Source of the DNA: Sinomonas sp. ASV322
GTDB lineage: Bacteria; Actinomycetota; Actinomycetes; Actinomycetales; Micrococcaceae
Assembly (NCBI RefSeq): GCF_030908245.1
Contig: NZ_JAVFJJ010000016.1
Span: forward strand, 1 to 64,000
Length of the DNA stretch: 64,000 nucleotides
Reading direction: 5' to 3'
Part shown: positions 48,692-64,000 of the stretch, piece after piece
Position numbering within the stretch: the stretch's first letter is position 1
Layout of the letters: each line of letters starts with the position of its first letter
Position numbers and translations under genes: made by a program
Notes under the pieces: generated by a model
The model's input: the letters and a program-made list of their open reading frames with translations, nothing else
What the model was told of the DNA's origin: nothing
Database searches by the model: none

Positions 48692-48843
48692 CCGTTCAGG
48701 GGTCACGTTCCGTGGGTTTCCTCCCGTTCAAGAGTCACGTTCCGTGGGTCCCCTACCGTTCAAGAGTCAGCTCCCGTGGGTCACGACCCGCGGGAGCTGA
48801 CCTTCAGATGGTGGGGTACCCGCGGGAGGTGACTTTTAAACGG
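48692..48843. repeat. 32-bp-period intergenic repeat, five units in two orientations (array 2)
   Basis: Three inverted units at 48692-48717, 48724-48749 and 48756-48781 (form CCGTTCAAGAGTCACGTTCC then GTGGGT) are followed by two direct units at 48786-48811 and 48818-48843 (form ACCCGCGGGAGCTGAC...). Within each group the starts are exactly 32 bp apart. The core is the same as the array at 6073-6130. The last unit supplies the stop codon and last codons of the convergent TetR gene. Confidence 0.9.
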
Positions 48844-50000: not shown

Positions 50001-50798
50001 CTAACGCCCCTCTTCGCCGAGGCGCCGGAGGTACGTGTCGACGTCGTATGGGTCGCCGCCTGAGGGCGGCGGCCCGTTCCATTCCTGCCCGGGCTTCGCG
50101 TCGGGCGTGTCGGGGCGCTCGGGGAGTGGTTCAGGAGTGGGTTCCTGGCGTACGACGCGCACCCGGCGATAATGGCGCTGCTCGAACATCTGCCGGCGCT
50201 GTCGCCGCGCCACGGAGAAGCCCATCACGGCCAAGATCAGCAGGACGAAAGGCACGCCGTCCGCGCGGCCCACGCCCAGAATGAGCATGAAGAGGGCCGC
50301 GATCCCGAGCCATCTGCCGCAGATGGCGAGGATATTCATGGCCCAGTTGTCCCGCCCGCTGTGCCACAGGGGGCGTGGGTCGACCCGAAGGGCCGCGAGA
50401 ATCCGCTGAGCCTGGCCGATCGTGAGGCCGCGCAGGCTTGGGCGCAGGCCCGTCTGCTGCCACACGGCCGAGCGCACGTACTCGATCTGGAACGGCAGCG
50501 CGGGTGGGGTCCCATCCGGGGCGAGGAGCTCGCGCCACATGTCGGTCGTCTGCGGCGTCACGACGCCCAAGCCCGTCCGGCGCGCGGGCGGGCGAGGCCG
50601 CTGGGGCTGGGGCTGGGCTGCGCGGGCAGGCACACCTGGCGCCGCGGATTGCGGCGCGGCGAACGACGACGGCGGGGCGGGCGACGACGGCGGGGCGAAC
50701 GACGACGGCGGGGCGGGCGCCGCTGGGCGCGCGCGCTCCGAGGAGCTTGCCGGGAAGCGTCCGGGCCTGTGGTGGTAGCGGTAGTGGAACCGTGGCAT
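50001..50798 (-). CDS. Membrane protein with Pro/Ala repeat region, function unknown
   Basis: 265 residues. The N-terminus is basic (PRFHYRYHHRPGRFP), followed by an APPSSF-type repeat (three near-identical 18-bp DNA units around 50663-50725), a conserved-looking soluble segment (about 75-155), two adjacent transmembrane helices (about 165-205) and a charged Pro-rich tail. ATG at 50798 has GAGGAGG upstream. Similar architectures occur in uncharacterised actinobacterial membrane proteins. It is divergent from the AvrD operon. Confidence 0.72.
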   Translation of the reverse strand: MPRFHYRYHHRPGRFPASSSERARPAAPAPPSSFAPPSSPAPPSSFAAPQSAAPGVPARAAQPQPQRPRPPARRTGLGVVTPQTTDMWRELLAPDGTPPALPFQIEYVRSAVWQQTGLRPSLRGLTIGQAQRILAALRVDPRPLWHSGRDNWAMNILAICGRWLGIAALFMLILGVGRADGVPFVLLILAVMGFSVARRQRRQMFEQRHYRRVRVVRQEPTPEPLPERPDTPDAKPGQEWNGPPPSGGDPYDVDTYLRRLGEEGR

Positions 50799-50977
50799 GA
50801 GGACCTCCTCTCGCCGACTCCATTCTAGGCTGGCAGCCCGGCAGGCCGGCAGGCTGGACGGCCGGAGGGAGCCGTTGCCTGTTGGTGCGGACAACACCGT
50901 GGACACGCACTGTCTCGCCCGAGAGTTCCCCGCGAGGCTGGAGGGGCAGGCCAAGCCCACCAGCAAGGAGGAACCCC

Positions 50978-51970
50978 GTGTCCCACGCGGTCACGTTGCA
51001 TCGGGATATCGACGAGCTCCTCGGAGACGCGGACGGCCGCTTCTTCGGCTCGGGCTATCGCCGGACGCATCCCGCCCTCAAGTCCCTTGTGATCACCCAC
51101 CGCGCGGACGCCTCTTCGGCCCGGGCCTCCGGCTCGCTCGGAATCGCGGGCACATGGTCCGCGAAGGGCGGCGTGGTCCAGCTGCCGCATCTGGGCACGA
51201 CCGACGTCATCGTCCTGGGCATGCGGCTCGCCCAGGCGCTCGTCGCGAGCCGCTACGCCCCGCGGGCGTGGTCGAAGGCCACGGTGAGCAGCCTCGCGAT
51301 CCGCGCGGGGAGCGCCCCGACCGAAGAAGGGCTCGGGGACTTCGAGTGCGCCGCGAGCCTCGCGCCCACCTCCGGAGGCTCCGCCCTCGTAGCCCAGATC
51401 GGCTCGATGGGGCTCAGGGTAGAGCTGCTCCACGGGCCGCTTCCCCTCGGGCTCGCGGGCATCGAGGCGCCAGACGAGGCCGCCCTCGTCGGGCCGGCGT
51501 CCGCGCGCGTGTACGGGACGCGCTGGTCCGAGCGCCGAGTCGAGGTGCGCGATGTCGTCGTCGATGCAGAGCGCGTTCGCGCCTCGGCTATCGTGGGCCT
51601 CGGCGGCTCGCCGGTGCCCGCTGACGGCGAAGGCCTCTGCTTCGTGGACCAGTTCGTCGCGGCGCTCCAGCTCGGCCAAGTGCTCCTCTACCGCCTCGAC
51701 AGCCTGGACCGCGCGTCAAGCGACACCCTATGGATGCGCTCCACCCGTTTCACGTGCACGGGCGCCCCGCCCGCGAGCCCGGCACCCCTCTCCGTGCAGC
51801 TCGAAGGTTCCCGCCTGCTCTCCAAGGACGGAGGCCACTGGCGGTGCGCCGACGTCGTCGGACGATTCGGGGGAACCGAGCTGCGCTGCTCGGTGGCCCA
51901 CCGGATCCCGTCCACCTCGTCCACCGGACGGACGGAAGAGGGGGAAGCTCAGCATGATCAGCAGCCATGA
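50978..51970 (+). CDS. AvrD-family protein (syringolide-synthesis-type)
   Basis: 330 residues. I recognise the AvrD family pattern: the N-terminal HRDIDELLGDADGRFFGSGYRR, then GTWSAKGGVVQLPHLGTTDVIVLGMRLAQAL, and a C-terminal block with CFVDQFVAALQLGQVLLYRLD and RASSDTLWMR. In Pseudomonas syringae AvrD directs synthesis of syringolides, acyl glycosides made from a beta-ketoacyl chain and a ketopentose. The GTG at 50978 has AAGGAGG upstream. Its stop lies inside the KAS III gene (17-bp overlap), so both are translated together. A hot-dog-fold relation to AfsA-type butyrolactone synthases is possible. Recognition is from memory of family sequence, not a search. Confidence 0.68.
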   Translation: MSHAVTLHRDIDELLGDADGRFFGSGYRRTHPALKSLVITHRADASSARASGSLGIAGTWSAKGGVVQLPHLGTTDVIVLGMRLAQALVASRYAPRAWSKATVSSLAIRAGSAPTEEGLGDFECAASLAPTSGGSALVAQIGSMGLRVELLHGPLPLGLAGIEAPDEAALVGPASARVYGTRWSERRVEVRDVVVDAERVRASAIVGLGGSPVPADGEGLCFVDQFVAALQLGQVLLYRLDSLDRASSDTLWMRSTRFTCTGAPPASPAPLSVQLEGSRLLSKDGGHWRCADVVGRFGGTELRCSVAHRIPSTSSTGRTEEGEAQHDQQP

Positions 51971-52976
51971 GCAGGCAGGCGCGTCGTCTCGGGGCGCGCG
52001 GCGGGCGGTCATCCGGGGCCTCGGAGCGGCCCTCCCTGCCAAGGTGGTGACCAACGACGACCTCTCGCGGGTGCACGATACGAGCGACGAGTGGATCCAG
52101 CGCCGCACGGGCATCCGCGAGCGGCGGCACGCGGCGGACGGCGAACAGACCAGCGACCTCGCGATCCTGGCCGCCCGGCGGGCCCTCGAAAGCGCCGGGG
52201 CGGAGCGGGCCGAGCTCGTGGTACTCGCGACGACCACTCCGGACAAGGTGTGCCCCGCCACGGCCCCCAAGGTGGCCGCCGTGCTCGGCCTCGCGGGCGT
52301 GCCCGCCTTCGACGTCTCGGCGGTGTGCTCGGGCTTCCTCTACGCCCTGGCCACCGCGGCGTGGGCCATCGAGTCGGGGAGCATCCAGTCCGCGCTCGTC
52401 ATCGGCGCGGAGACGTTCACGCGCCTCCTCGACCCCGTGGACCGGACGACGGCGGTCATCTTCGGCGACGGGGCGGGGGCCGTCCACCTCGAGTCCGGGA
52501 GCGAGGCCGAACCCGGCGCCGTCCTCATGACCCGGCTCTACGCGGACGGGACGGACGAGGAGCTGATCCACGTGCCGCAGCCGGACGACGGGGCACAGGG
52601 CTCCTACTTCCAGATGAACGGCCGCGAGGTCTTCACGAAGGCCGTCGAAGCCATGTCCGCCTCGGTCGACTCCGTCCTCGGCGAGATCGGCTGGCGGCGC
52701 GACGAGGTCGATGCGCTCATCGCGCACCAGGCCAACCTGCGCATCCTCACGGCCGTCGCCCACATCGCGGGCCTCGAAGCGGCCGACGCCGAAATCCACC
52801 TTGACCGGGTCGGCAACACGTCCGCCGCGTCGATACCCCTCGCCATGGCCGCCGCCGCGGCCGCCGGCCGACGGCGTCCCGGGGATCGCGTCGTCCTCAC
52901 CGCCTTCGGCGGCGGGACCACCTGGGGTGCCGCGGCCCTCACATGGCCCGAGCTGGCCGTCATCGATCCCCACTGA
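51954..52976 (+). CDS. Beta-ketoacyl-ACP synthase III (FabH-like)
   Basis: 340 residues of the thiolase fold. The catalytic triad is complete: Cys125 in VSAVCSGFLYAL, His258 in IAHQANLRIL and Asn288 in VGNTSAASIP. Also TSDEWIQRRTGI and the C-terminal FGGGTTWGAAAL. KAS III enzymes condense an acyl-CoA starter with malonyl-ACP or transfer acyl groups; here the acceptor is probably the ACP two genes on the same operon, giving the beta-ketoacyl substrate for the AvrD-like protein. A housekeeping fabH normally sits with fabD/acpP, so this is a specialised copy. Confidence 0.94.
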   Translation: MISSHEQAGASSRGARRAVIRGLGAALPAKVVTNDDLSRVHDTSDEWIQRRTGIRERRHAADGEQTSDLAILAARRALESAGAERAELVVLATTTPDKVCPATAPKVAAVLGLAGVPAFDVSAVCSGFLYALATAAWAIESGSIQSALVIGAETFTRLLDPVDRTTAVIFGDGAGAVHLESGSEAEPGAVLMTRLYADGTDEELIHVPQPDDGAQGSYFQMNGREVFTKAVEAMSASVDSVLGEIGWRRDEVDALIAHQANLRILTAVAHIAGLEAADAEIHLDRVGNTSAASIPLAMAAAAAAGRRRPGDRVVLTAFGGGTTWGAAALTWPELAVIDPH

Positions 52977-53016
52977 CCTTCCGCACGCACCTCGTGCGCA
53001 ACACCAGGAGAATTCC

Positions 53017-53280
53017 ATGCCCATCACCGCAGCCGACGTCACGCAGGCCATCGCCGCGACCATGGACGAGTACGCGTCCCTCGGACCCGAGCAGTCCTTC
53101 GTCGAGGCGGACATCGACTCCCTCTCGCTCGTCGAGGCGGCCGTCATCCTGACCAACCGCTTCGGCGTCCGCGTCGACGAATACGAACTCGCCGAGGCGG
53201 GCACCGCCTCCGCCACCGCACAGCTCATCCAGAGCCGCCTCGACGCGCTCCGCCGGACGCCCACCATCGCGGCGTCCTAG
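53017..53280 (+). CDS. Acyl carrier protein
   Basis: 87 residues with the phosphopantetheine site in ADIDSLSLVE (Ser35) and the acidic four-helix ACP pattern. AGGAG precedes the ATG at 53017. A stand-alone carrier next to a dedicated KAS III and a type II thioesterase points to a small acyl-derived natural product. Confidence 0.93.
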   Translation: MPITAADVTQAIAATMDEYASLGPEQSFVEADIDSLSLVEAAVILTNRFGVRVDEYELAEAGTASATAQLIQSRLDALRRTPTIAAS

Positions 53281-53328
53281 CCCGGACTCGAGCCTCCCAC
53301 CTGCCAACTCACTCCAAGGAGAACTGCC

Positions 53329-53946
53329 ATGGCTTCACCCGACGTGCGCATCGCCGTCGTCTACTACTCCGGCTCGGGACACACCGCGGTCCTCGCCGAG
53401 GCCGTCGAGCGCGCCGCAGCCGAGGCAGGCGCCGAGACGCGCCTGTTCCGCGTCGACGGGCTCGCCCAGGAGTCGTGGGACTTCCTCGACAGCGCCCACG
53501 CCATCGTCTTCGGGGCCCCGACCTATATGGGCACCGCCCCCGCCGCGTTCCACGCGTTCGCCGAGCTCACCCCGGGCCGCTGGCTCCAGCAGTCGTGGAA
53601 GGACAAGCTCGCGGCCGGCTTCACGAACGCCGCGTGCAAAGCCGGGGACAAGAGCTCGACCCTCGACTATTTCGCGACCTTCGCGGCCCAGCACGGCATG
53701 AACTGGATCAACCTCGGCCTCCTGCCCGGCTGGAGCAGCGTCACCGGAAGCGAAGACGATCTGAACCGCCTGGGCTACTTCAACGGCGCCGCGGCGCAGA
53801 GCCCGTCCGGGGCCGGCGTCGAGGGCGTCCACCGCGCGGACGTCGCGACCGCGGCCCACCTCGGCCGCCGCGTCGCCGAGCTCGCCAGGGTGTTCGTCGC
53901 GGGTCGGGCCGCGCTGGACGAAGAGCTCGTCGGGGCCTCGGCCTGA
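53329..53946 (+). CDS. Flavodoxin-fold NAD(P)H:quinone oxidoreductase-like protein
   Basis: 205 residues. FMN-binding P-loop VVYYSGSGHTAVLAEAV at the N-terminus, second FMN loop GAPTYMGTAPAAFHAF and GFTNAACKAGDKSSTL as in WrbA-like flavoproteins. It may reduce quinones or supply electrons to the monooxygenase downstream. The stop TGA overlaps the next ATG. Confidence 0.88.
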   Translation: MASPDVRIAVVYYSGSGHTAVLAEAVERAAAEAGAETRLFRVDGLAQESWDFLDSAHAIVFGAPTYMGTAPAAFHAFAELTPGRWLQQSWKDKLAAGFTNAACKAGDKSSTLDYFATFAAQHGMNWINLGLLPGWSSVTGSEDDLNRLGYFNGAAAQSPSGAGVEGVHRADVATAAHLGRRVAELARVFVAGRAALDEELVGASA

Positions 53947-54890
53947 TGGCGGAGACGACAGCCGCAGCCCGCACCGGGACCGCGTGGACGCTCGCGCGCA
54001 CGGCGCTCGGGCCGGCCATCGGCGGCACCACCTACCTTGCGGCGCAGTATCTGCCGCTAGCACCGTACTGGGACGCCGCCATCCGCTCGATCCCGGCCGG
54101 CATCCTGCTCCTCGTGTTCTGGCGCGGAACGCTCCGCGGCGTGTGGTGGGGCAAGGCGCTCGTCATCGGGACGCTCAACATCGGCGTCTTCTTCGGGCTG
54201 CTGTTCGTGTCGGCGCAGCGGCTCCCCGCGGGCGTCGCGGCGACCCTCGGGGCGCTCGCGACGCTCGTGGCCCTCGTCGCCGCCATCCCGATCTTGCGCG
54301 AACGGATCAGGCCCATCCAGTTCGCGGGGGGCCTCGTCGGCGTCGTCGGCGTCGCCCTGCTCGTGCTGCGCGGGACCGCCGCGATCGATCCCCTCGGCGT
54401 CGCCGCGGGACTCGGCTCCGCGGCGAGCCTCGGCATCGGCCTCACGCTCTCGCGGCGCTGGGGAAAGCCCGCGGACCTCCACGGCCTCGGCTTCGCCGGC
54501 TGGACCCTCATCCTCGGCGGGCTCGTGCTCGTCCCGGTGGCGTTCCTGCTCGAGGGGCCGCCGCCCGCCTTCACGCTGCCGCAGCTCGGCGGGATGGCGT
54601 ACGTGTCGATCGGCGGATCGGCCATCGGGTACGGGCTCCTGCTCACCGGGGTCCAGAAGCTCCCGATGTCCCTCGCCGCGCCGCTGCCGCTCATGAGCCC
54701 GCTCGCCGCGGCGCTCTCCGGATGGCTCATCGCGGGGCAGGTCCTCGGCGGGCTCCAGATCCTGGGCGCGTGCCTCGTCGGCGCCGCCGTCCTCCTCTGC
54801 ACGCTCAGGTTCCGACGGCCGCCCGCCGTCCGCGAGGCGTCCAGAACCGAATCGGCTGTGACCAGTGAAGCACCGGCAAGGAGCAGCTGA
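53946..54890 (+). CDS. EamA/DMT-family transporter
   Basis: 314 residues, ten predicted helices arranged as two EamA repeats (TYLAAQYLPLAPYWDAAIRSIPAGILLL and SIGGSAIGYGLLLTGVQKLPMSLAAPLPLMSPLAAAL). Members export metabolites and amino acid derivatives. Coupled by stop-start overlaps on both sides (TGATG), it is the likely exporter of the operon product. Confidence 0.92.
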   Translation: MAETTAAARTGTAWTLARTALGPAIGGTTYLAAQYLPLAPYWDAAIRSIPAGILLLVFWRGTLRGVWWGKALVIGTLNIGVFFGLLFVSAQRLPAGVAATLGALATLVALVAAIPILRERIRPIQFAGGLVGVVGVALLVLRGTAAIDPLGVAAGLGSAASLGIGLTLSRRWGKPADLHGLGFAGWTLILGGLVLVPVAFLLEGPPPAFTLPQLGGMAYVSIGGSAIGYGLLLTGVQKLPMSLAAPLPLMSPLAAALSGWLIAGQVLGGLQILGACLVGAAVLLCTLRFRRPPAVREASRTESAVTSEAPARSS

Positions 54891-56041
54891 TGGCGCGAAC
54901 TGCGGATGTCGAGGTGCTCATCGTGGGGGCTGGCCCCGTCGGCCTCATGCTGACCTGCCTCCTGCGGCGGCGCGGCATCAGCTGCGCCGTCGTCGACCGG
55001 CGGACGGGAATCGATCTGCGTCCACGGGCCATCACGCTCCACCGCACGGCCATTGACCTCTTCGCGGGGCTCGGCCTTCTGGAAGCCCTCCTGCGGGTCT
55101 CGATACCGATGGATCGGATCTCCTTCCACGCCCAGGACGGGCGCGAGTTCGTCGGGAGGCTCGCCGGCCAGGGCGGAATCGTCGACGGATACCTCAATAC
55201 GCTCCAGCCCTCTTATCAAGCGCTCCTCCTCGAGGAGGCGCGGAGGCTCGGCGCCGAGGTGAGGCTCGGAGCCGAGGTGGTCGGGCTGGCCCCGTCCGAA
55301 CACTCCGTCAGGGCATTCCTCGGTTCGCCCCGCGGCGGGCAGATCATGGACGCCGCCTTCGCGGTGGCGGCCGACGGCGCGACGAGCACCGTGCGCCGGC
55401 TCCTGAACGTCGAGATGGAGGGGAAGGGGCCGACGCGTTCTTACGTCCTCCTCGAAGGCGACCCCGTGCTTGCGCCCCCCGAGGGCGAGACTGGGCTCTA
55501 CGTCGGCGACGCGGGCATGGTCACGCTTGCACCGCTTCCCGCGGGCAAGGTAAGGATCGCCGGTCCCGCCGATGAGGGATTGCGGATCGAGCGAGGTGAC
55601 GAGATCAGCGCCGCCTCCGCCGCCGCGCTCATCGATCGCCTCGGATTCGGGCAGCGGCTGCTTCTCGCGAGGGCCGACCGCGTCACGCACTACACGGTCC
55701 GGCAGCAGGTCGCGAGCCGTTTCGACCACGGCCGCGTGCTCCTTGCCGGGGACGCGGCCCACCTCAACGCGCCGGCCGGCGGCCAAGGAGTCAACCTCGG
55801 GTTCGGCGACGCCGAAGCCCTTGCGTGGCGTATCGAGGCGGCGCTTGGCGCCTACGACGCGGGGCTCTTCGGCTCGTACGACGACGAACAGCGTCACCTC
55901 GCCGCCTCGACGATCGAGCAGGCCGACGTCTTCCCCATCGTGCAGGCCATCCGCGAGCACAGCACGCTTTCTGACCGGCACGCTCAAGCACTTCTCGACC
56001 AGCGCGCCATCGCCTGGACCCAGCATCGGGCGGCGGCCTAG
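54890..56041 (+). CDS. FAD-dependent monooxygenase (group A, PheA/TetX-like)
   Basis: 383 residues. Rossmann GAGPVG (13-18), the conserved Arg of RPRAITLHRTAIDLFAGLGL, DG motif VAADGATSTVRR and the second FAD motif VLLAGDAAHLNAPAGGQGVNLGFGDA. The layout is that of aromatic-polyketide hydroxylases but without their C-terminal thioredoxin-like domain. It should hydroxylate or epoxidise the intermediate, using NAD(P)H and O2. It begins at the exporter stop (TGATG). Confidence 0.92.
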   Translation: MARTADVEVLIVGAGPVGLMLTCLLRRRGISCAVVDRRTGIDLRPRAITLHRTAIDLFAGLGLLEALLRVSIPMDRISFHAQDGREFVGRLAGQGGIVDGYLNTLQPSYQALLLEEARRLGAEVRLGAEVVGLAPSEHSVRAFLGSPRGGQIMDAAFAVAADGATSTVRRLLNVEMEGKGPTRSYVLLEGDPVLAPPEGETGLYVGDAGMVTLAPLPAGKVRIAGPADEGLRIERGDEISAASAAALIDRLGFGQRLLLARADRVTHYTVRQQVASRFDHGRVLLAGDAAHLNAPAGGQGVNLGFGDAEALAWRIEAALGAYDAGLFGSYDDEQRHLAASTIEQADVFPIVQAIREHSTLSDRHAQALLDQRAIAWTQHRAAA

Positions 56042-56141
56042 CCCCGCTCCGGGCATCGTGCTGGCCACCGAGCGCGGCCCGGAGGAGCCACCCACTGACC
56101 CGGGCCTGCATCTGCAGGCTCCCGATCACACAGGAGAAACC

Positions 56142-56561
56142 ATGACCTTCCCCGCAATGCCTCCGGCCGTCGCCGAGTTCTACCGCGGCTCGCAGATCCC
56201 CGACGCGGACCTGTGGGCTGGCGCCTTCGCGGCCGACGGCGTGTTCCACGACCCGGTGGGCAGCGAGCCGATCGTCGGGCGCGAGGCCATCCGGGCCAAG
56301 CTCACCGCGGTCATCCCCAAGTTCCCCGGCTTCTACGGCCTCACGCCGCTCACGGCCCACACGGTAGCCGGCAGGACCGCCGTGGGCTGGACGGGCGCCG
56401 TCGTGGCCGCGAACGGCAATCCGATCAACTGGTCCGGGATCACGATCTTCACGCTCGACGAGGACGGCCTCATCGCGGACGCGGCGGCGTACTTCAACCA
56501 CGATGTGTTCGTGGCCCAGCTCAACGGGAGCTCGCTCCTGGGCGTTTCGCCCGCCCATTGA
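56142..56561 (+). CDS. SnoaL-like/NTF2-fold protein
   Basis: 139 residues: LWAGAFAADGVFHDPVGSEPIVGREAIRA is the standard SnoaL-like N-terminal half, with GWTGAVVAANGNPINW and FTLDEDGLIADAAAYFNHD completing the cone. SnoaL relatives catalyse aldol cyclisation or isomerisation in polyketide paths. Ribosome site AGGAG; 100 bp after the monooxygenase, with no obvious terminator between. Possible cyclase of the pathway. Confidence 0.85.
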   Translation: MTFPAMPPAVAEFYRGSQIPDADLWAGAFAADGVFHDPVGSEPIVGREAIRAKLTAVIPKFPGFYGLTPLTAHTVAGRTAVGWTGAVVAANGNPINWSGITIFTLDEDGLIADAAAYFNHDVFVAQLNGSSLLGVSPAH

Positions 56562-56609
56562 CCCCAGCAGGCCTCGACCGGCTGCAGGCACCTGTCCGGC
56601 AGCCGGGCG

Positions 56610-57257
56610 TCATGCTGCCCGGGCCGGGACGTAGCGGGCAATGGCCGCCGGGAGGGCACGGCTGCGGCGATGGAAGAGGTGCCCGCCGGTCACGAGGAGC
56701 CGCTCGGGCCGTGTGAGGCACCAGCGCTCCCAGTCCCACACGTCGCGCGCGGCGACGACTTCGTCGTCGTCCGCCGCAACGAGCAGGACGGGCGCCGCGA
56801 GCGAATGCTCCCGAGCGGCCTCCCGGCCGCCGTACGCGTCGAGGAGCGCCAGATCCGCCTCGAGCACCTCGGCGGCGCGCCGCCCCGACGCCGCGGGGAG
56901 GCCTGGGCGCGGCACCGCGCGCGGCCGGCGCATAGGATCCGGGGAAGCGCTCGCGGCGAGGACGACGGCGGCAGGCGGCAGGCCCGCTCGCTCGAGCAGG
57001 AGGGCGGCCTCGTAGGCGAGGACGGCACCCATGCTGTGGCCGTAGAGGACGACGCCGCCGCTCCCGAACTGCGCAAGGCCCTCGGCCATGGTCGCGGCGA
57101 GGTCCGCGAGCGAACCGTGCCGCGCGCCGCGATACCCAAGCAGCTCGAGCCGTGCTTCGGGAACGGACCACCCCGCGAAGCACGCGGTGGTCCCGCCGGC
57201 GTGGTGGATGCAGGCGACGACCGCCTCGTCGTAGACGCGGGGCATCGCCGTCGTCAT
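56610..57257 (-). CDS. Type II thioesterase (alpha/beta hydrolase)
   Basis: 215 residues, slightly shorter than usual (about 240). HHAGGTTACFAGW matches the type II thioesterase opening; the nucleophile is GHSMG (Ser75), the Asp is probably in VAADDDEVV and the His in GGHLFH (His193). It would clear or release acyl chains from the ACP. It is convergent with the SnoaL-like gene and starts two bases after the HxlR stop. Confidence 0.92.
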   Translation of the reverse strand: MTTAMPRVYDEAVVACIHHAGGTTACFAGWSVPEARLELLGYRGARHGSLADLAATMAEGLAQFGSGGVVLYGHSMGAVLAYEAALLLERAGLPPAAVVLAASASPDPMRRPRAVPRPGLPAASGRRAAEVLEADLALLDAYGGREAAREHSLAAPVLLVAADDDEVVAARDVWDWERWCLTRPERLLVTGGHLFHRRSRALPAAIARYVPARAA

Positions 57258-57258
57258 G

Positions 57259-57675
57259 TCAGTGGACGACGGCAGACGTGGCCTGCTGGCGGTCGTGGGA
57301 CATGCGGCTCCGGGCCACCGCGTCCATGTTCGACTCGGACCATGCCTTCATCGACTCGATGAGGGGAAGGAGCGAGCGGCCGAGACCCGTCAGCTCGTAG
57401 TCGCTGCGCGGCGGGATGCTCGGTGTCGTGGTCCGCAGGACCAGGCCGTCGCGCTCGAGCGCCCGCAGCGTCGAGGTGAGCATCTTCTGGCTCGCCCCGA
57501 CGATCTGCCGCCGAAGCTCGCTGTGCCGACGCGAGCCGCCGGCGAGCTCGAGCAGGATGAGCGTCACCCATTTGCTGCTGATCGCCTCGAGGAGCTGCCG
57601 CGCGGGGCAGCCCTCGAGCATGGCGTTGTAGTCCTCGTATGCGGCCTGGCGCTTCTGCTCCGCGGTCAGTGTCAC
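57259..57675 (-). CDS. HxlR family transcriptional regulator
   Basis: 138 residues with the HxlR winged helix: CPARQLLEAISSKWVTLILLELAGGSRRHSELRRQIVGASQKMLTSTLRALERDGLVLR and YELTGLGRSLLPLI. HxlR regulators respond to reactive aldehydes or quinones, sometimes through a Cys; one Cys lies at the start of the motif. GTG start at 57675 behind GGGGGG. Co-directional with the thioesterase and the XRE gene. Confidence 0.92.
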   Translation of the reverse strand: MTLTAEQKRQAAYEDYNAMLEGCPARQLLEAISSKWVTLILLELAGGSRRHSELRRQIVGASQKMLTSTLRALERDGLVLRTTTPSIPPRSDYELTGLGRSLLPLIESMKAWSESNMDAVARSRMSHDRQQATSAVVH

Positions 57676-57716
57676 GTTCGCCCCCCGATGGTGTGTCCAC
57701 ACGTACCACTCGGATC

Positions 57717-58592
57717 TTAGCCCGCGCCATGGGCCGTCCGCCCCCGGATGTCGTCGGAGGACGCCGAGAGCCAGCGCTCGAGCTGGGCGGCCGTGCGTGT
57801 CCCGGCGCGGGGGAGGTAGGTGTAGAGGCGCAGGGGCGAGTCGCCCTGGCTCATCGAGACGGGCTCGAAGCTCAGCATCCCGAGCGTCTCGTGCTCGAAC
57901 ACGATGTCCACGCGGTAGGTTTCGCCGACCATGTGCCGATCCCAGTACTCGCGGAACAGGGAGGAGCCTGCGCGAAGCCGGGCCGCCATCTCGTCGAACT
58001 CGCGGTCGTCGGGGTAGCGGGCGGTCTGGGCGCGGAACTGCTCGACGAGCGAGCGCCCCATGAGCTCGCGGTGGACGTATCGCCCGGCTACGCCCGGTTC
58101 GAGGAAGAAGCGTTCGAGGCAGCTCTCGCCGACCTTCGCGTCGAAGCATTCGCGCGCGAGGCGGTTGGCAGCCACGACGCGCCAGTATGGGTCTGCCGCG
58201 TAGGCCGGGGCGGCTGTCACCTCGATGAGGGCCTCGAGCCGGGCGCGCTCCGCGTCGACCGGGAACTCGGCCCGCGGGGGCCGCCGGGAGAGGCGGTGCA
58301 TGTAGCGGCGTTCGTCGTCGTCGAGCCGCAGGACGTCGGCGATCGCCTCGAGCACGTCGTCGGACGCCCCGATGGCGCGGCCCTGCTCGAGCCACGTGTA
58401 CCACGAGACCCCAACGTTGGCCATGACGGCCACCTCTTCACGGCGGAGGCCCGGCGTCCTCCGCCGTGCCGAGCGGGGCAGGCCGAGGTCTTCGGGGCTC
58501 AGCAGCCCGCGCTTGGAGCGGAGGAATTCCCCGAGCCTCCGATGCCGCTGGGAGGACGACGACGATCCGTCCGAGGTCTTGACAGCTTCCAT
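57717..58592 (-). CDS. XRE-type regulator with MmyB-like ligand domain
   Basis: 291 residues: HTH_31-type N-terminus (LGEFLRSKRGLLSPEDLGL, GLRREEVAVMANVGVSWYTWLEQGR) followed by the MmyB-like domain (APAYAADPYWRVVAANRLARECF, FEMAARLR-type segment and VFEHETLGMLSFEPV). In Streptomyces such regulators control methylenomycin-type clusters and bind fatty-acid-like ligands. The ATG at 58592 follows GAAGGGGGAA. It is a probable regulator of the neighbouring biosynthetic operon. Confidence 0.9.
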   Translation of the reverse strand: MEAVKTSDGSSSSSQRHRRLGEFLRSKRGLLSPEDLGLPRSARRRTPGLRREEVAVMANVGVSWYTWLEQGRAIGASDDVLEAIADVLRLDDDERRYMHRLSRRPPRAEFPVDAERARLEALIEVTAAPAYAADPYWRVVAANRLARECFDAKVGESCLERFFLEPGVAGRYVHRELMGRSLVEQFRAQTARYPDDREFDEMAARLRAGSSLFREYWDRHMVGETYRVDIVFEHETLGMLSFEPVSMSQGDSPLRLYTYLPRAGTRTAAQLERWLSASSDDIRGRTAHGAG

Positions 58593-58746
58593 TGCTTCCC
58601 CCTTCGCACTGCTCTTGCACGCAGCGGCCCGGCCTGCGCCGCGTTGCGCGTCGCGGACCGGGCCGCCGTCGTCGTGCACACCGCTCCTGCGGTGCGTGAT
58701 CCGGCAGCGAGTGCCGGAGTGTGCCCTGCCGTTAGGCAGAAAGCCG

Positions 58747-59466
58747 TCAGGCAGAGATCGTGGAGCGCTCCTCCTCCGGCCGGACGTCGAGCGCCGCGTA
58801 CTCGGCGGCGGCGAGCTCGATCGCGTCCTCGGGCCGCATCCTGACGGCGAGCCCGAAGTGGGCGGCCACCTGGAGCAGGCGCTCCTCGACCGTCCCCGAC
58901 ACGACGTGGAAGGGAATGCCGAGCTCGTCCATCGTCGTCTGGAGGATCTCGTCGGACATCGTCCGGAAGTTCTCGTTGACGGGCCGGTGGCCGTCGGCCG
59001 AGAGGGGAAGCTCGTGGCGCAAGTGCACGAACGCGTCGAACGACTTCCGCACGTGGAGCTTGAAGCTGTTCCCCAGGGAGGCCATGACCTCGCCGAAGTA
59101 CGCGAGCTCCGGGGTGAGCTCTACACTCTCGCCCGCGGCGAGGTGGGCTGAGCTGTTCGGGTTGAGCCCGAGCCGCACGCGCACCGAACCGTAGATCCAT
59201 TCCTGCAGCGATGAGCCGTCCGAGACGAAGCCCGTCTCCGCGAGCTGCGACTCGTAGACGGCGCGCTCAACGTGCCGCGTCACGATCATCTGGATGAGTT
59301 GCGTGGCCGTGCACTGCTCAAGGGTCTTCCCGGGAGCGGCCTCGGGCAGGATCTCGCGCATGGTGCGCGCCTTCGTGCGCGGAAGGCCCGTGTAGTGCGA
59401 GAGGGCCATGGACGTAAAGGTCTTGCCCGAGGAGTAGGTCCCCGAGATGCCGAGCCGCAGCGCCAT
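58747..59466 (-). CDS. NadR-like P-loop ATPase/kinase
   Basis: 239 residues. Walker A GTYSSGKT (Gly9-Thr16) at the N-terminus; the remainder resembles the AAA_28/NadR kinase-like group: RTMREILPEAAPGKTLEQCT, FVSDGSSLQEWIYG (lid-like), ESVELTPELAYFGEVM and IPFHVVSGTVEERL, where the Val-Ser-Gly is typical. It may phosphorylate a small molecule such as a sugar or nucleoside. It starts two bases after the azoreductase stop. Function is inferred only from the fold. Confidence 0.78.
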   Translation of the reverse strand: MALRLGISGTYSSGKTFTSMALSHYTGLPRTKARTMREILPEAAPGKTLEQCTATQLIQMIVTRHVERAVYESQLAETGFVSDGSSLQEWIYGSVRVRLGLNPNSSAHLAAGESVELTPELAYFGEVMASLGNSFKLHVRKSFDAFVHLRHELPLSADGHRPVNENFRTMSDEILQTTMDELGIPFHVVSGTVEERLLQVAAHFGLAVRMRPEDAIELAAAEYAALDVRPEEERSTISA

Positions 59467-59468
59467 GG

Positions 59469-60131
59469 TCAGTCCCTCACGAGGGCGGATTCGAGGCGCG
59501 CCGCGAAGCGTGGGGCGTGCGCGGCGAGCTCCGCCTCCGCGACGAGGCGCGTCGCCTCGGGGTCAGCGTTGAGAACGGTCGGAGCGAACCGGATGTGGGC
59601 CGCGTCCTCGATGCCGACGAACTCGAGCCAGTCCGCGAAGAACGTGCTCGAGTAGTCCGAGCCGAAGGCAGGGTCGATGCCCGGCGTGAAGACGCCCGAC
59701 GTGTGGATCGCGACGGCGTGCTTGTTCTCCATGAGGCCGCGGTACCCGGTCTCCGGGTCGAAGCCGAAGCTCCAGCCGGGCTGGGTCACAATGTCGACCC
59801 ACTGCTTGAGCGCGTAGGGGACGCCAGCGTTCCACATGGGGATGTTGAACACATACGCGTCGGCGGCCGCGAAGCGGTCGAAGACCGCGCGGGCGTCCTC
59901 CCATGCGCGCATCTGGGCGGGGGTCTGGTCCTGCCCTGTGAAGATGGCCATCTTGGCCTGTGCGGCCGTGGTCCCGAACTCCGGCAGGACGCCCTGGTCG
60001 AAGAGGTTGAGGGTCTCGACCTCGACACCCGGGGTGTGCTCGCGCACGGTGTCGAGGAAGAGGCGGGCGAGCTGGAGCGACTGGCTGTGGGCCTCGCGGG
60101 GGCTCGCGTTGACGTGGAGGATCGAGGGCAT
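59469..60131 (-). CDS. FMN-dependent NAD(P)H azoreductase-like oxidoreductase
   Basis: 220 residues of the AzoR/flavodoxin-2 family: HVNASPREAHSQSLQLARLFLD, FNIPMWNAGVPYALKQWVDIV and the FTPGIDPAFGSDYSSTF tail. It reduces quinones or azo compounds with NADH. Start ATG at 60131 with AAAGGAAG. Two palindromes lie between this gene and the divergent HAD gene. Confidence 0.9.
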   Translation of the reverse strand: MPSILHVNASPREAHSQSLQLARLFLDTVREHTPGVEVETLNLFDQGVLPEFGTTAAQAKMAIFTGQDQTPAQMRAWEDARAVFDRFAAADAYVFNIPMWNAGVPYALKQWVDIVTQPGWSFGFDPETGYRGLMENKHAVAIHTSGVFTPGIDPAFGSDYSSTFFADWLEFVGIEDAAHIRFAPTVLNADPEATRLVAEAELAAHAPRFAARLESALVRD

Positions 60132-60198
60132 GGGTCTTCCTTTCGAACGCCAGTGGGTCCCTTCCATCGTTCCCACTCGTTCGGGAGCAGCGGAAGAA

Positions 60199-60233
60199 GG
60201 CACTTTGAGGTGCCCCAGGCACTTCGAAGTACC
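60199..60233. promoter_or_regulatory. Two tandem 16-bp palindromic sites
   Basis: GGCACTTTGAGGTGCC (60199-60214) and GGCACTTCGAAGTACC (60218-60233), starts 19 bp apart, in the divergent azoreductase-HAD region. Arms of five to seven bases are complementary. They resemble HxlR- or MarR-type operators. Confidence 0.6.
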
Positions 60234-60272
60234 CTCCTGCGCGGCCTTGCGGAGTCGACTAGGCTCTGGGCC

Positions 60273-60980
60273 GTGCCGCCCAGAGCCTCCACCCCGCCGC
60301 CGCGCGAATCCTTTCCGCAGGCCGTCTACGCCGACGTCGACGGCACGATCACGCGGTACACGACGATCTTCGACTTCCTCCTCTTCGACGCCCGCCTCCG
60401 CGGCGTCGAGCCCGAGGGCCGTGCGTTCCTCGCCTCGCTCCGCGAGCGGGCCGCGGCCGGGGAGCCGCGAACGGCCACGAACACGCACTACTTCACATGG
60501 TGGGCCGGGCGGGCCGCGGACGACGTCGACGCCGTCGCCCACGCGTGGGCCGAGGGCCTCGGCAGGCGCGACGGGCTGTTCCACGAGGGCGTGGCGCTCC
60601 GGCTCGAGCGCGCGCGGCTCCAGGGGTCCCGGCTCGTCGCCGTGACCGCGTCCTTCCGGCCGGCGCTGAGACACGTGCTCGAGCGTCTCCCCGACCTCGA
60701 GCTGCTGTGCGCCGAACTCGAGACCGGCCCGGACGGGCGCTACACGGGTGCAATCGACGCCCCTCTCGTCGGGGACGCCAAGGCACTCCGCGTGCGAGCC
60801 CACGCCGAGGCCTTTGGCATCGAGCTCGCGCGGTGCGAGGCCTACGGCGACCACCCGAGCGACCTGCCGTTCCTCCGGGCGGCCGGCTGGGCCTGGCTTG
60901 TCGGGGCCGACGGCGAACTCGTCCCTGTGGAGAGCTCCGCCGAAGGAGCGGCCCGCCGAGTGGACGGCCGGGTACTCTGA
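60273..60980 (+). CDS. HAD-IB family phosphatase
   Basis: 235 residues. HAD motif I YADVDGTIT (Asp21, Asp23), motif II region VTASFRPAL, the Lys-bearing DAKALRV and motif III YGDHPSDLPFLRAAG match PSP/SerB-like HAD-IB enzymes, which dephosphorylate small substrates. Start GTG at 60273 with poor upstream site. It may remove a phosphate from the AvrD-cluster intermediate, but it could be unrelated. Confidence 0.88.
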   Translation: MPPRASTPPPRESFPQAVYADVDGTITRYTTIFDFLLFDARLRGVEPEGRAFLASLRERAAAGEPRTATNTHYFTWWAGRAADDVDAVAHAWAEGLGRRDGLFHEGVALRLERARLQGSRLVAVTASFRPALRHVLERLPDLELLCAELETGPDGRYTGAIDAPLVGDAKALRVRAHAEAFGIELARCEAYGDHPSDLPFLRAAGWAWLVGADGELVPVESSAEGAARRVDGRVL

Positions 60981-61143
60981 AGGGGTGAAGGCACCTCTGG
61001 ACGTCGTTGCCGACGAAGGCGAGATACAAGGGACGCGCTCCGCTCCGCGCGTCCTGCCCCTGATTCCCTGACGCTCCACGCGTCACGGCCACCCTCCGGG
61101 AACCCTAGGGAAGGGCGCGGCTCCCTGTCCGCTGCCTTCGTGA

Positions 61144-62349
61144 ATGAGGTTCTTCATGACCCGCCCATCTGGGGCCCTCGTGGCCCTGTGCTTTGCCATG
61201 CTCGGATTCCATGTTGGGGTCCGGGCCGTCCAACTCTCCGACCTCGTCCCTGCCCTCGGCCTCACGCCGGGCGAACTGGGACTCGCCTCGTCGGCAGGAG
61301 TCCTCGCGGGAATCGCGACGCTCGCCGGCGGAGGCCTCGTCGTCGACCGCCTCGGCCGTCGCCCCGCGCTCGTGGCCGGATTCGCCGGCGCCGGTGCCGC
61401 GTTCGCCGCGATGAGCGCCGTCGATTCCTTCGTTCAGTTCCTCGCGGCCAACGTGGCACTCGGACTCTCGATCAGCATCGTGGACCTCGGTGTCAATACT
61501 GTGGCAAGCGACTACGAGCGGGCCGCCGGGGCCCACACGATGACCGGATTCCACTCGTGGTTCAGCCTCGGGGCGGCTGCCGGCGCGGGGAGCTGCGCCG
61601 TCGGACTCGCGGTCGGAATCGGATTCCGGCCGACGTTCCTCGCGCTGGGGCTCATGCTCGCGGCGACTGCGCTCGTCGTTGCGTTCGGGCGGCTGCCGCA
61701 GGCCGCCCGCCCGTCGCCCGCTCCTGCCGGTGAGCCGCGAGCAAGGTTCCTCGGCCCGCTCGTGCTGCTCGCGACAGCGATCGTGTTCTTCTGCTTCTTC
61801 GGAGACGGGATTCTCGAGACGTTCCTCTCGACCTATCTGCGGATCGACGGGCATGACGTGGTGCTCGCGGGAGGCGTGCTCGCCGCGTTCCACGCCGCCT
61901 CGTGGGGCGGGCGGATCGTCTTCCAGCGGACCCTCTCGCGCGTGAAGGAGCGGACGGTCCTCGTCATCGTGGGGACCGTGGCCTCGGCGGCGACGGCGGC
62001 CGGCCTCTACGCTCCCGCGGGGTGGGCGGCCTTGGGGTGCTTCGCCGTCGTGGGCTTTGCCCTCTCGCCGATCGTCCCGCTCGGGATGTCGATCGCCGGA
62101 CGCGCGGCGCCAGCCGGACACTCGGGGCGAGCGGTGGGCTTCGTGACGAGCGTCGGCTACACCGCGTTCATCCTGAGCCCGCTCACGGCCGGCGCGATCG
62201 CCGACCGATGGGGCCTGCACACGGCTATCTCGCTCGCCGCGGTCACGATGGGTGCCGTTGCCGCGCTCGGTTTCGGCGTCCGGAGGGGGCGCCGAAGCCG
62301 AGAACGGGAACCGGGTGGTGCTGTGGCCAGTTCGGGGGAGCCGCGCTAG
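61144..62349 (+). CDS. MFS transporter
   Basis: 401 residues, 12 helices. A loop VDRLGRRPALVAG after helix 2, and a FucP/YbjJ-like layout with GFHSWFSLGAAAGAG at helix 5 and the conserved LGMSIAGRAAPAGHSGRAVGFVTSVGYTAF in the second half. Alternative start at the Met four codons in. Substrate unknown. It ends two bases before the convergent anti-sigma-type gene stop. Confidence 0.9.
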   Translation: MRFFMTRPSGALVALCFAMLGFHVGVRAVQLSDLVPALGLTPGELGLASSAGVLAGIATLAGGGLVVDRLGRRPALVAGFAGAGAAFAAMSAVDSFVQFLAANVALGLSISIVDLGVNTVASDYERAAGAHTMTGFHSWFSLGAAAGAGSCAVGLAVGIGFRPTFLALGLMLAATALVVAFGRLPQAARPSPAPAGEPRARFLGPLVLLATAIVFFCFFGDGILETFLSTYLRIDGHDVVLAGGVLAAFHAASWGGRIVFQRTLSRVKERTVLVIVGTVASAATAAGLYAPAGWAALGCFAVVGFALSPIVPLGMSIAGRAAPAGHSGRAVGFVTSVGYTAFILSPLTAGAIADRWGLHTAISLAAVTMGAVAALGFGVRRGRRSREREPGGAVASSGEPR

Positions 62350-62350
62350 G

Positions 62351-63454
62351 TCACGCGTCCGCGAAGGCTGTGTACGACCACACGCTCGGGACGGGCGCCG
62401 GGGGCTTCTTTCCGTTGGCGGGACCGGCGATGTAGTCCTCTTCGACGTCGAGGATCCGACCCGTCGCGTCGTCGATGACGAGGATGCTGCGGTACGTGCC
62501 CCAGTCCTTGGGCGAGTCCAAGTAGATGGCGGTGCCTGGCCGACCGAGGCGGTCCGTCACGGCCCCGAGCGCCGTGACCCCCGGTAGCGCGTCGACCACC
62601 GAAAGGTAGGCGCGCTGCTGGGCGTTCGAGAGGTTCCGATCGCGCGACATGACCTCCATCATCTGGAACACGCCCTGCGCGTCCTCGTAGACCACGGCTC
62701 CGTACTTGCTCTGGAAGTCGTGGATCCATGCGGCCATCGAGGCATCGTCTGCCGGTGGCTTGGGGTAGGGATCTCCCTTCGGTGTCTTGCGGACGTCGGG
62801 CGAAAGTTTGGGGTCGAGTGGAACAGTCCAAGCCTCCCCGGGTTTGACGGGCCTTCCGTTGCCCTGCGGCGAGTCGTCGCGAATCGGCGGAAGCGCGTAC
62901 TTGACGTCCGGGCTCGTCGGCGAGAAGGGCTGCCCGACAACTCGCGTCATCGTGCCGGTTCCGTCTGCCTCGCGGCGGATCGTGATCGTCTGCGGCAGTA
63001 CGTAGGGCGCGCCGGACTTCCCGCCGGGCAGTGATTCGTTTCCGGCAATCCAGCTGTTGCGCGTGTAGTACCCCGGTTTGAACCCGGCCGGATCCGGGGC
63101 CAGGAGCTTCTTGCGCGCGGCGGCGATGACGTCTGCGGCGGTCACGGAGAGCGGGCGGACGTCGAGCATCTTCGGCCCTGCCGCCTCGGCCACGGCCGGA
63201 CCCACGGGGCTCCCCGCGTCCCGAGGCCACGAGACCGTCGCGATGGCGCCCGCAGCGGCCGCTGCCGCCGCGCCGACCCCGATGAGGACCGCGCGTCGTC
63301 CGACGACACGACGCGGCGCGTGCCGTGGATCCCGGCCGGACCCGCCGAGAATCGCGCGGAGGTCGAGCTCGGCGCGGAGGTCGAGCGGCTTCGCTTCGGT
63401 GAGCGGCACCGGGTTGGCGGCTCGGAGTTCGTGATCAAGCGTTTCCATGGCCAT
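62351..63454 (-). CDS. CU044_5270 family protein (sigma-factor-associated membrane protein)
   Basis: 367 residues. A cytosolic N-terminus of about 50 residues with repeated L/DLRAELDLRAIL segments, one transmembrane helix (RAVLIGVGAAAAAAAGAIATV), and an extracytoplasmic domain ending in VTDRLGRPGTAIYLDSPKDWGTYRSILVIDDATGRIL, the recognisable CU044_5270 pattern. The gene overlaps the ECF sigma gene by 20 bases, the usual pairing for this family, in which it probably acts as sensor or anti-sigma. Confidence 0.88.
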   Translation of the reverse strand: MAMETLDHELRAANPVPLTEAKPLDLRAELDLRAILGGSGRDPRHAPRRVVGRRAVLIGVGAAAAAAAGAIATVSWPRDAGSPVGPAVAEAAGPKMLDVRPLSVTAADVIAAARKKLLAPDPAGFKPGYYTRNSWIAGNESLPGGKSGAPYVLPQTITIRREADGTGTMTRVVGQPFSPTSPDVKYALPPIRDDSPQGNGRPVKPGEAWTVPLDPKLSPDVRKTPKGDPYPKPPADDASMAAWIHDFQSKYGAVVYEDAQGVFQMMEVMSRDRNLSNAQQRAYLSVVDALPGVTALGAVTDRLGRPGTAIYLDSPKDWGTYRSILVIDDATGRILDVEEDYIAGPANGKKPPAPVPSVWSYTAFADA

Positions 63455-63977
63455 GTCCCTTCTTCGCCAAAATGTCTTTGAGCGCCTTTCGCGCCCGGCT
63501 GACCCGCTTCCACGCCGATGCTTCGGAACAGCCGAGGACCTCGGCCAGACGGGAGGCGCTCAACTCTTCCCAATAGGTCAGATAGAGAATGTCCCGGTCT
63601 TTGTAGCGGAGTTCGAGCAGCGCCTCCCGGATGAGGTCCGCCGCCGATTCGCTGTCCGCGTGGGACGTGTCGTGCTGAATGCGCGCCAAGAGCGCGCGCT
63701 CCCGAAGTTGGCGCCGATATTCGTTCCCGATGAGATTGCGGGCGATGCCATAGAGCCACGCGAGCTCGTGGTCTCCTCGATCGGCGATTTTCGACCACGC
63801 AATGCGAAAAGTGTCTGCCGCGATCTCGCGCGCGGTTTCCTCATCGCTCAGCCGACGATTCGCGAACGCAAAGATCATCCAGTAATAGCGGCGATAGAAC
63901 GCGGCGAACGCCTTCTCATCCACTGCTTCGGCGGGCTCTTCGCGAGCCTCGGAAAGGCTCGCGTCCATCACACTCAT
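63435..63977 (-). CDS. ECF-type RNA polymerase sigma factor
   Basis: 180 residues. Region 2: FAAFYRRYYWMIFAFANRRLSDEETAREIAADTFRIAW; region 4: ALLELRYKDRDILYLTYWEELSASRLAEVLGCSEASAWKRVSRARKALK, the HTH that binds the -35. The ATG at 63977 follows GAGGGGG; a GTG two codons upstream is possible. Start is 23 bases from the window end, so its promoter is outside. Overlap with the downstream gene implies coupled expression. Confidence 0.94.
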   Translation of the reverse strand: MSVMDASLSEAREEPAEAVDEKAFAAFYRRYYWMIFAFANRRLSDEETAREIAADTFRIAWSKIADRGDHELAWLYGIARNLIGNEYRRQLRERALLARIQHDTSHADSESAADLIREALLELRYKDRDILYLTYWEELSASRLAEVLGCSEASAWKRVSRARKALKDILAKKGHGHGNA

Positions 63978-64000
63978 GCGCACCCCCTCGGTAGGACTCC

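What the first reader, a model, noticed from the sequence alone, without database searches (positions are those of the whole stretch)
50978..60980. AvrD-headed biosynthetic locus for an unknown acyl-derived small molecule
An AvrD-family protein, a specialised KAS III with an intact Cys-His-Asn triad, a stand-alone ACP, a flavodoxin-like protein, an EamA exporter, a flavin monooxygenase and a SnoaL-like protein form one tightly coupled operon; a type II thioesterase and HxlR and XRE/MmyB regulators are convergent with it. Seen: gene order, overlaps, motifs. Known: AvrD makes syringolides from beta-ketoacyl and ketopentose precursors; the XRE/MmyB class regulates signalling or antibiotic clusters. 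Inference: KAS III and ACP build the beta-ketoacyl chain, AvrD condenses it with a sugar or triose unit, the oxygenase and SnoaL tailor it, and EamA exports it. I know of no described actinobacterial product of such a set.
Basis: partly seen in the sequence, partly recalled or inferred. Interest (0 to 1): 0.88.

Follow-up and report, generated by a model that had tools for sequence, protein, structure and literature searches.

The report
AvrD-type butenolide antibiotic-like gene cluster
This is a gene cluster on an acquired DNA island in an actinobacterium that very probably makes a small lactone-derived molecule by the opening steps of the antibiotic methylenomycin, but with different finishing enzymes, and whose relatives often keep a kinase-like enzyme whose role is still unexplained.

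Summary
The 50978 product is an AvrD protein (Pfam E 8e-62), followed by KAS III, ACP, flavodoxin-like, EamA, flavin monooxygenase and SnoaL genes, facing thioesterase, HxlR and XRE/MmyB genes. Seven window genes match a methylenomycin-type cluster, its MmyB included. A ten-gene version sits in eight Arthrobacter/Zhihengliuella loci; EamA-FMO-SnoaL is an extra cassette, found complete elsewhere only in one Streptomyces locus. The cluster lies on a 13.5-kb island missing from that place in five congeners. AvrD is predicted to be a double hot-dog enzyme, the P-loop protein a nucleoside-kinase-fold protein, found in 27 of 34 AvrD loci. Best reading: beta-ketoacyl-ACP plus a pentulose gives a butenolide, reworked by a kinase/phosphatase pair and flavoenzymes. 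Product unknown. A new variant of a known kind.

The parts
50853..64000 (.). genomic island missing from the same place in five same-genus genomes; it runs 365 bases past the window end, to about 64365 of the contig
   Evidence: blastn: own 50163-50852 and 64366-65121 match G162 blocks 104 bp apart; flank genes adjacent or within about 0.7 kb in 5 of 5 same-genus loci fetched
50978..51970 (+). AvrD-family protein, putative butenolide synthase (MmyD homologue, 36%)
51954..52976 (+). KAS III (FabH-type, MmyC homologue, 54%)
   Evidence: NF006829 374 bits; alignment to solved FabH; one other KAS III-like place in own genome, 41% in its best piece
53017..53280 (+). stand-alone acyl carrier protein with DSL serine
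   Evidence: PF00550; MmyA homologue 45% over 53 aa
53329..53946 (+). flavodoxin/WrbA-like FMN oxidoreductase
   Evidence: PF03358, PF00258; 69-74% in the eight Micrococcaceae loci, 64% in L039 and 63% in L046
53946..54890 (+). EamA-type transporter (cassette gene)
   Evidence: PF00892; 56% in L039; best outside own gene in 296 class genomes 48%
54890..56041 (+). class A flavin monooxygenase, 383 aa (cassette gene)
   Evidence: PF01494 3.4e-56; 39% in L039; solved relatives listed are mostly longer
56142..56561 (+). SnoaL-like protein (cassette gene)
   Evidence: PF12680; 63% in L039 and L048; in 1 of 295 family genomes at E 1e-10, the own one
56610..57257 (-). type II thioesterase
   Evidence: PF00975; 39-46% in the eight Micrococcaceae loci; weakly MmyT-like, 30% over 92 aa, E 8e-06
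57259..57675 (-). HxlR regulator
   Evidence: PF01638; 66-68% in the eight Micrococcaceae loci
57717..58592 (-). XRE/MmyB-class regulator
   Evidence: PF17765, PF13560; 42% over 264 aa to the MmyB homologue of L019
58747..59466 (-). P-loop, kinase-fold protein (AAA_28); hit by both P-loop proteins of the methylenomycin-type cluster (51%, 42%)
59469..60131 (-). flavodoxin-fold NAD(P)H oxidoreductase
   Evidence: PF02525 1.4e-37; 67-72% in the eight Micrococcaceae loci, 58-59% in two Saccharothrix AvrD loci, directly before AvrD in L056
60273..60980 (+). HAD phosphatase-like protein (36% to the HAD of the methylenomycin-type cluster)
   Evidence: PF12710 1.2e-26
61144..62349 (+). MFS transporter on the island; link to the pathway uncertain
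   Evidence: PF07690; other hits in 15 genus genomes 34% or less; no hit in the other AvrD loci

Best explanation
An apparently complete, horizontally acquired AvrD-type biosynthetic cluster. KAS III and the ACP build a beta-ketoacyl-ACP; AvrD, a double hot-dog enzyme, transfers it to a pentulose (or pentulose phosphate) and closes a butenolide, as proposed for MmyD. The kinase-fold protein then phosphorylates a hydroxyl of the sugar-derived part and the HAD protein removes phosphate, so that mid-pathway chemistry runs through phosphorylated intermediates. The two FMN oxidoreductases reduce or isomerise the ring; in this strain an extra monooxygenase and SnoaL protein oxidise and rearrange it and EamA exports it. 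The thioesterase edits or opens the lactone; HxlR and MmyB-class regulators control the genes. Shown: gene content, conservation, island, homology to methylenomycin-type genes, predicted folds. Inferred: every catalytic step, the kinase's activity and substrate, the product.
For: Families. Of 20 proteins of a methylenomycin-type plasmid cluster, nine hit the island at E 0.01, on seven window genes: counterparts of MmyB, D, C, A, T (T weak), two P-loop proteins, the HAD and the MmfP-like HAD. MmyD deletion abolishes methylenomycin, whose carbons come from two acetates and a ribose (PMC12593393); inactivating the AvrD gene of S. ambofaciens abolishes sphydrofuran (PMC11195616). Ten-gene cluster in eight Micrococcaceae loci, all ten genes in 7 of 8. 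Cassette also in Streptomyces ISL-94. Hot-dog fold. Kinase fold; kinase profile in 27 of 34 AvrD loci, and in 37 of all 50 AvrD loci scanned; in 4 of 295 family genomes, all four among the 10 with AvrD and within 7 kb of it (chance overlap 7e-7, relatedness ignored). Empty site.
Against: No metabolite, expression or enzyme data. Thirteen of 50 AvrD loci scanned have no kinase; five have AvrD within 4 kb of an end of the stretch (L043, L048, L050, L064, L118), eight do not (L038, L059, L060 and, with mostly divergent AvrD, L023, L026, L028, L029, L117). Six of the 10 AvrD genomes of the family lack it. The published sphydrofuran gene list shows a histidine phosphatase but no kinase. So phosphorylation may not be general. 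Sequence searches of the PDB give no convincing match for the kinase (best E 0.01, P-loop only); the kinase claim rests on a predicted fold, and a fold does not prove activity or substrate. EamA relatives are common (67 of 296 class genomes at E 1e-40, own included), so its role is weakly supported.
Confidence: 0.72

Rival explanations
1. The kinase acts before AvrD, making a pentulose 5-phosphate from a free pentulose, and the HAD protein only removes that phosphate after condensation, as a phosphatase does in A-factor-type pathways (recalled).
For: AvrD and the kinase gene are neighbours without KAS III/ACP in L112, L114, L054, L056 and L057, and in L113 whose AvrD lies near a contig end, as for a substrate-supplying partner. 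Sphydrofuran's list has a phosphatase but no kinase, as if the phosphate arrives with the sugar.
Against: Pentulose phosphates are common metabolites, so a dedicated kinase is not needed; the methylenomycin-type cluster holds two such proteins. The authors place MmyX and MmyK between the MmyD lactone and the cyclopentanone; that these are the P-loop proteins is by recalled gene order.
Confidence: 0.35
2. The product is a diffusible signal of the butenolide kind rather than an antibiotic; the MmyB-class and HxlR proteins sense it.
For: AvrD chemistry gives butenolides; an MmyB relative binds myristic acid in its crystal structure (PMC3406030, abstract); a possible exporter is present.
Against: No AfsA match and no hit of the ScbR-type regulator on the island; tailoring genes and the methylenomycin homology fit an antibiotic-like metabolite at least as well.
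Confidence: 0.25
3. The genes act in fatty-acid or lipid metabolism and AvrD is a thioesterase or dehydratase-like lipid enzyme.
For: AvrD's nearest solved folds are TesB thioesterases, PKS dehydratases and FatA.
Against: AvrD homologues are tied by knock-outs to methylenomycin and sphydrofuran; 14 of 15 genus genomes have no AvrD; the cluster is on an island.
Confidence: 0.08
4. The cluster is decayed or silent cargo with no product.
For: Island present in 1 of 15 genus genomes by its AvrD; AvrD lacks a six-residue loop seen in its near relatives.
Against: 14 of 14 frames intact with third-position GC 0.85-0.94, conserved residues kept, tight overlaps.
Confidence: 0.08

Closest known systems
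Methylenomycin (mmy) cluster of Streptomyces coelicolor plasmid SCP1; read here in a Streptomyces anthocyanicus plasmid with the same gene content (L019), not in SCP1 itself
   Same: AvrD, KAS III, ACP, MmyB-class regulator, HAD and P-loop proteins, weakly a thioesterase
   Different: 11 of 20 proteins have no hit here, among them the counterparts of MmyE, MmyO and MmyF and the Mmf-type synthase; two FMN oxidoreductases, HxlR, FMO, SnoaL and EamA instead
Sphydrofuran cluster of Streptomyces ambofaciens (SAM23877_3924-3936)
   Same: AvrD, KAS III, ACP, an FAD-dependent monooxygenase, a phosphatase-family gene, on a genomic island
   Different: By its gene list: aldo/keto reductases, carboxymuconolactone decarboxylase, hot-dog thioesterase, no kinase; sequences not compared here
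Syringolide synthesis by Pseudomonas syringae AvrD
   Same: AvrD family, 26-27% identity for the matches that cover most of the protein
   Different: No cluster comparison made; the Pseudomonas loci were not fetched
AfsA/gamma-butyrolactone synthases
   Same: Beta-ketoacyl plus sugar-type condensation logic (recalled); a HAD protein as in MmfP, 31%
   Different: This AvrD has no AfsA Pfam match
Arthrobacter/Zhihengliuella AvrD clusters and Streptomyces sp. ISL-94 (no product found)
   Same: Ten shared genes in Micrococcaceae; EamA-FMO-SnoaL in ISL-94
   Different: The Micrococcaceae ones lack the cassette and have the HAD-oxidoreductase-kinase-XRE block the other way round; in the ISL-94 stretch held, thioesterase, HxlR, XRE and second oxidoreductase were not found
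HIBGC1 of MAR4 streptomycetes
   Same: FabH-like and AvrD-like proteins, product unknown (PMC4650096, one passage)
   Different: With a prenyltransferase; sequences not compared here

Membership tests
AvrD protein family (PF05655) | full-length match above the curated cut-off | tested here: met
   209.9 bits against 25, positions 2-331 of 331
AvrD protein family (PF05655) | butenolide synthase activity on beta-ketoacyl thioester and pentulose | not testable with these tools
   needs an enzyme assay
Methylenomycin-type cluster | AvrD + KAS III + ACP early module | tested here: met
   36%, 54%, 45%
Methylenomycin-type cluster | MmyB-class regulator | tested here: met
   42% over 264 aa
Methylenomycin-type cluster | P-loop proteins and HAD | tested here: met
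   one P-loop protein here against two there, and one HAD
Methylenomycin-type cluster | later genes: flavin oxidoreductase (MmyE), monooxygenase (MmyO), flavin reductase (MmyF), and the F420-type reductase and Gfo/Idh genes of the cluster | tested here: not met
   no tblastn hit at E 0.01 in 50801-64000; so it is not filed as a methylenomycin cluster
Gamma-butyrolactone (AfsA) system | AfsA domain | tested here: not met
   only AvrD is hit in the 50978-51970 protein at E up to 10, and the AfsA-like protein of L019 has no hit in 50801-64000
Nucleoside/ribosylnicotinamide kinase fold (58747-59466) | predicted fold over most of the domain | tested here: met
Nucleoside/ribosylnicotinamide kinase fold (58747-59466) | sequence similarity to solved kinases | tested here: inconclusive
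   best profile match E 0.01 over the P-loop only; none in the single-protein search
Nucleoside/ribosylnicotinamide kinase fold (58747-59466) | kinase activity | not testable with these tools
   P-loop GTYSSGKT and an SDG at the end of the second predicted strand are present, with G9, G14, K15, S82, D83, G84 invariant in 34 rows; activity unknown
Hot-dog fold (AvrD) | two hot-dog repeats | tested here: met

The most novel reading that the evidence does not exclude
Many actinobacterial AvrD pathways, this one and methylenomycin included, run through phosphorylated intermediates made by a dedicated nucleoside-kinase-fold enzyme and undone by a HAD phosphatase; this is the missing mid-pathway step between the AvrD lactone and the finished ring, and the window's flavodoxin/FMO/SnoaL branch leads to a new class of small lactone- or cyclopentanone-type metabolites in Micrococcaceae.
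Probability: 0.4. Interest if true: 0.72.

Novelty: new variant of a known kind. Interest (0 to 1): 0.52.

Why it matters
[quoted passage not shown] Comparison across AvrD loci gives a testable role for the conserved P-loop proteins. It also defines a compact cluster type in Arthrobacter and kin, for which I found no product, with the cassette present or absent in near relatives: a natural experiment on what the cassette does.

Tried and rejected
A single-protein query against genome contigs gave no relatives; an alignment query did. Search for a shared operator upstream of AvrD in nine clusters: the commonest inverted repeat (TGGTG arms, spacer 10) is in 7 of 9 and not in the window; among the top repeats printed none includes the window. 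Sequence searches of AvrD and the kinase in the PDB gave nothing convincing. Taking TetR (48836-49474) and SnoaL (49574-49990) as part of the cluster was rejected: both stand beside the same left-flank gene in the empty-site relative G162. AfsA membership rejected. A sigma-70-type factor and an overlapping gene of no Pfam family (62351-63983) on the island have no relative at E 1e-4 in 50 other AvrD loci and are left out of the pathway. Origin of the cassette (shared ancestry with loss, or transfer) is not settled: window and ISL-94 AvrD are not sisters, yet cassette identities (39-63%) are like those of the core (35-64%). L038 (fused frame), L064 (fragment) and the loci not were left out of AvrD alignment A2 and the tree; L047's partial kinase was left out of alignment A3. 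The two 295-genome draws show the same handles; I take them as the same genomes. In one search at most nine candidates per genome were scored and at most seven, so weak relatives could be missed. Third-position GC of HxlR was taken in a wrong frame; one search replaces it.
Full report
Observation. The first ORF, 50978-51970, is a full-length AvrD protein (PF05655, 8.2e-62); no AfsA match appears at E up to 10. KAS III overlaps it by 17 nt; ACP, flavodoxin-like, EamA, FMO and SnoaL genes follow on the same strand; thioesterase, HxlR and XRE/MmyB genes face them. All 14 frames from AvrD to the MFS gene are free of internal stops, third-position GC 0.85-0.94. The KAS III is FabH-type; its His and Asn line up with a solved FabH chain, its Cys motif is read from the sequence. 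The genome has one other KAS III-like place, 41% in its best piece.

The stretch to 60980 also holds a P-loop protein (AAA_28), a flavodoxin-fold NAD(P)H oxidoreductase and a HAD protein. These are not bystanders. Eight distinct Micrococcaceae loci (Arthrobacter alpinus plasmid L018; Arthrobacter L031, L032, L033, L035, L036, L053; Zhihengliuella salsuginis L034) hold AvrD, KAS III, ACP, flavodoxin, thioesterase, HxlR, HAD, oxidoreductase, P-loop protein and XRE in one order; all ten are found in 7 of 8, HAD being undetected in L035. In the window the HAD-oxidoreductase-P-loop-XRE block is the other way round as a unit. EamA, FMO and the SnoaL gene are in 0 of these 8.

The cassette. Streptomyces sp. 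ISL-94 (L039) carries, in one direction, P-loop protein, flavodoxin (64%), another SnoaL-like gene, EamA (56%), FMO (39%), SnoaL (63%), AvrD, KAS III, ACP and HAD. L046, whose AvrD lies in the same small clade (96/90), has the P-loop protein, flavodoxin, the other SnoaL-like gene, AvrD, KAS III, ACP and HAD but no hit for EamA, FMO or the window's SnoaL. So the cassette is present or absent among near relatives in two lineages. The SnoaL gene is in 1 of 295 family genomes at E 1e-10, the own one. EamA homologues are common (67 of 296 class genomes at E 1e-40, own included), the best outside the own gene at 48%, so EamA alone is weak evidence.

Island. Own DNA up to 50852 and from 64366 matches same-genus genome G162 in blocks 104 bp apart there; in 5 of 5 same-genus loci fetched the left-flank gene lies next to, or within about 0.7 kb of, right-flank genes, and no gene from AvrD to the MFS gene is hit there at E 1e-10. 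AvrD is in 1 of 15 genus genomes, 10 of 295 in the family and 12 of 396 in the order, own included each time. The AvrD tree puts the window beside seven Micrococcaceae rows (99/96).

Comparison with known systems. Methylenomycin is made from two acetates and a ribose; MmyD, an AvrD homologue, is proposed to condense acetoacetyl-MmyA with a pentulose, and its deletion abolishes production (PMC12593393: abstract, introduction, first of two parts of the results, and passages). Sphydrofuran depends on an AvrD gene next to KAS III and ACP genes (PMC11195616: one section and passages). A Streptomyces anthocyanicus plasmid cluster with the methylenomycin gene content (L019; the record does not name the product) was compared protein by protein: of 20 proteins, nine hit the window island at E 0.01, namely the MmyB, D, C, A and T counterparts, two P-loop proteins (both to the same window gene), the HAD and the MmfP-like HAD; eleven do not, among them the counterparts of MmyE, MmyF and MmyO. 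The nine fall on seven window genes. Which mmy letters the P-loop, HAD and other genes bear was assigned by gene order from memory. So the early module is shared and the finishing steps are not. Other papers: PMC3406030 abstract, PMC4650096 one passage, PMC6256639 passages. The rest of searches (terms: AvrD with syringolide, AfsA, butenolide, sphydrofuran or xanthocidin; AvrD family/-like/homolog; MmyD; MmyB; methylenomycin with Arthrobacter) was seen as listings; nothing there describes an Arthrobacter-type AvrD cluster, and the library lacks most subscription journals.

Kinase linkage. In the 34 AvrD loci the kinase profile is found in 27, KAS III in 28, HAD in 23, XRE in 18. Of the seven without kinase, four have AvrD within 4 kb of a locus end and three do not (L038, L059, L060). 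Of the 16 further loci, ten have it; L023, L026, L028, L029, L117 and L118 do not, most with divergent AvrD: 37 of 50 in all. In the family it is in 4 of 295 genomes, all among the 10 with AvrD and within 7 kb of it; chance overlap 7e-7, ignoring relatedness. L112 and L114, and L113 near a contig end, have AvrD and kinase without KAS III/ACP.

Mechanism. Inferred: KAS III and ACP give a beta-ketoacyl-ACP; AvrD makes the butenolide; the kinase phosphorylates a sugar-derived hydroxyl, giving a leaving group or a recognition handle; HAD removes phosphate; FMN oxidoreductases, and here FMO and SnoaL, finish; EamA exports. Because nucleoside kinases act on a hydroxymethyl beside a five-membered ring (recalled), I favour action on the AvrD product (about 0.55) over the free pentulose (about 0.35). 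The methylenomycin authors leave MmyG, K, Q, X and Y open.

Verdict. Real, intact and largely as described; its start is known biochemistry, its finishing set and the kinase link are new to me. New variant of a known kind.

Noticed in passing
L059 7507-12391: Kitasatospora xanthocidica: 2-oxoacid dehydrogenase E1-beta-like and E2 genes stand directly before AvrD, KAS III and ACP; a candidate xanthocidin cluster with its own acyl-CoA starter supply (that this species makes xanthocidin is guessed from its name).
   Followed up: partly
L021 4917-14321: Streptomyces sp. NBC_00503 plasmid: annotated E1/E2, acetolactate synthase and ketol-acid reductoisomerase genes lead into AvrD, KAS III and ACP, with LLM monooxygenase and flavin reductase genes nearby; another candidate for a branched-chain methylenomycin analogue.
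   Followed up: partly
L023 6076-10434: Micrococcaceae genome with an MmyB-class regulator, a metallo-beta-lactamase-fold gene, an MFS gene and AvrD, and no KAS III or ACP hit in 20 kb.
   Followed up: partly
L112 8179-9936; L113 and L114: AvrD and the kinase-fold gene adjacent without KAS III/ACP hits, in other families of the order.
   Followed up: partly
window 62351-63983: A sigma-70-type factor and an overlapping gene of no Pfam family inside the island, with no relatives in the 50 other AvrD loci tested.
   Followed up: partly
L064 88-465: Salinicola corii (a gammaproteobacterium, recalled) has an AvrD fragment at a contig start with KAS III and FMO hits nearby, so such clusters may reach beyond actinobacteria and Pseudomonas.
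   Followed up: no
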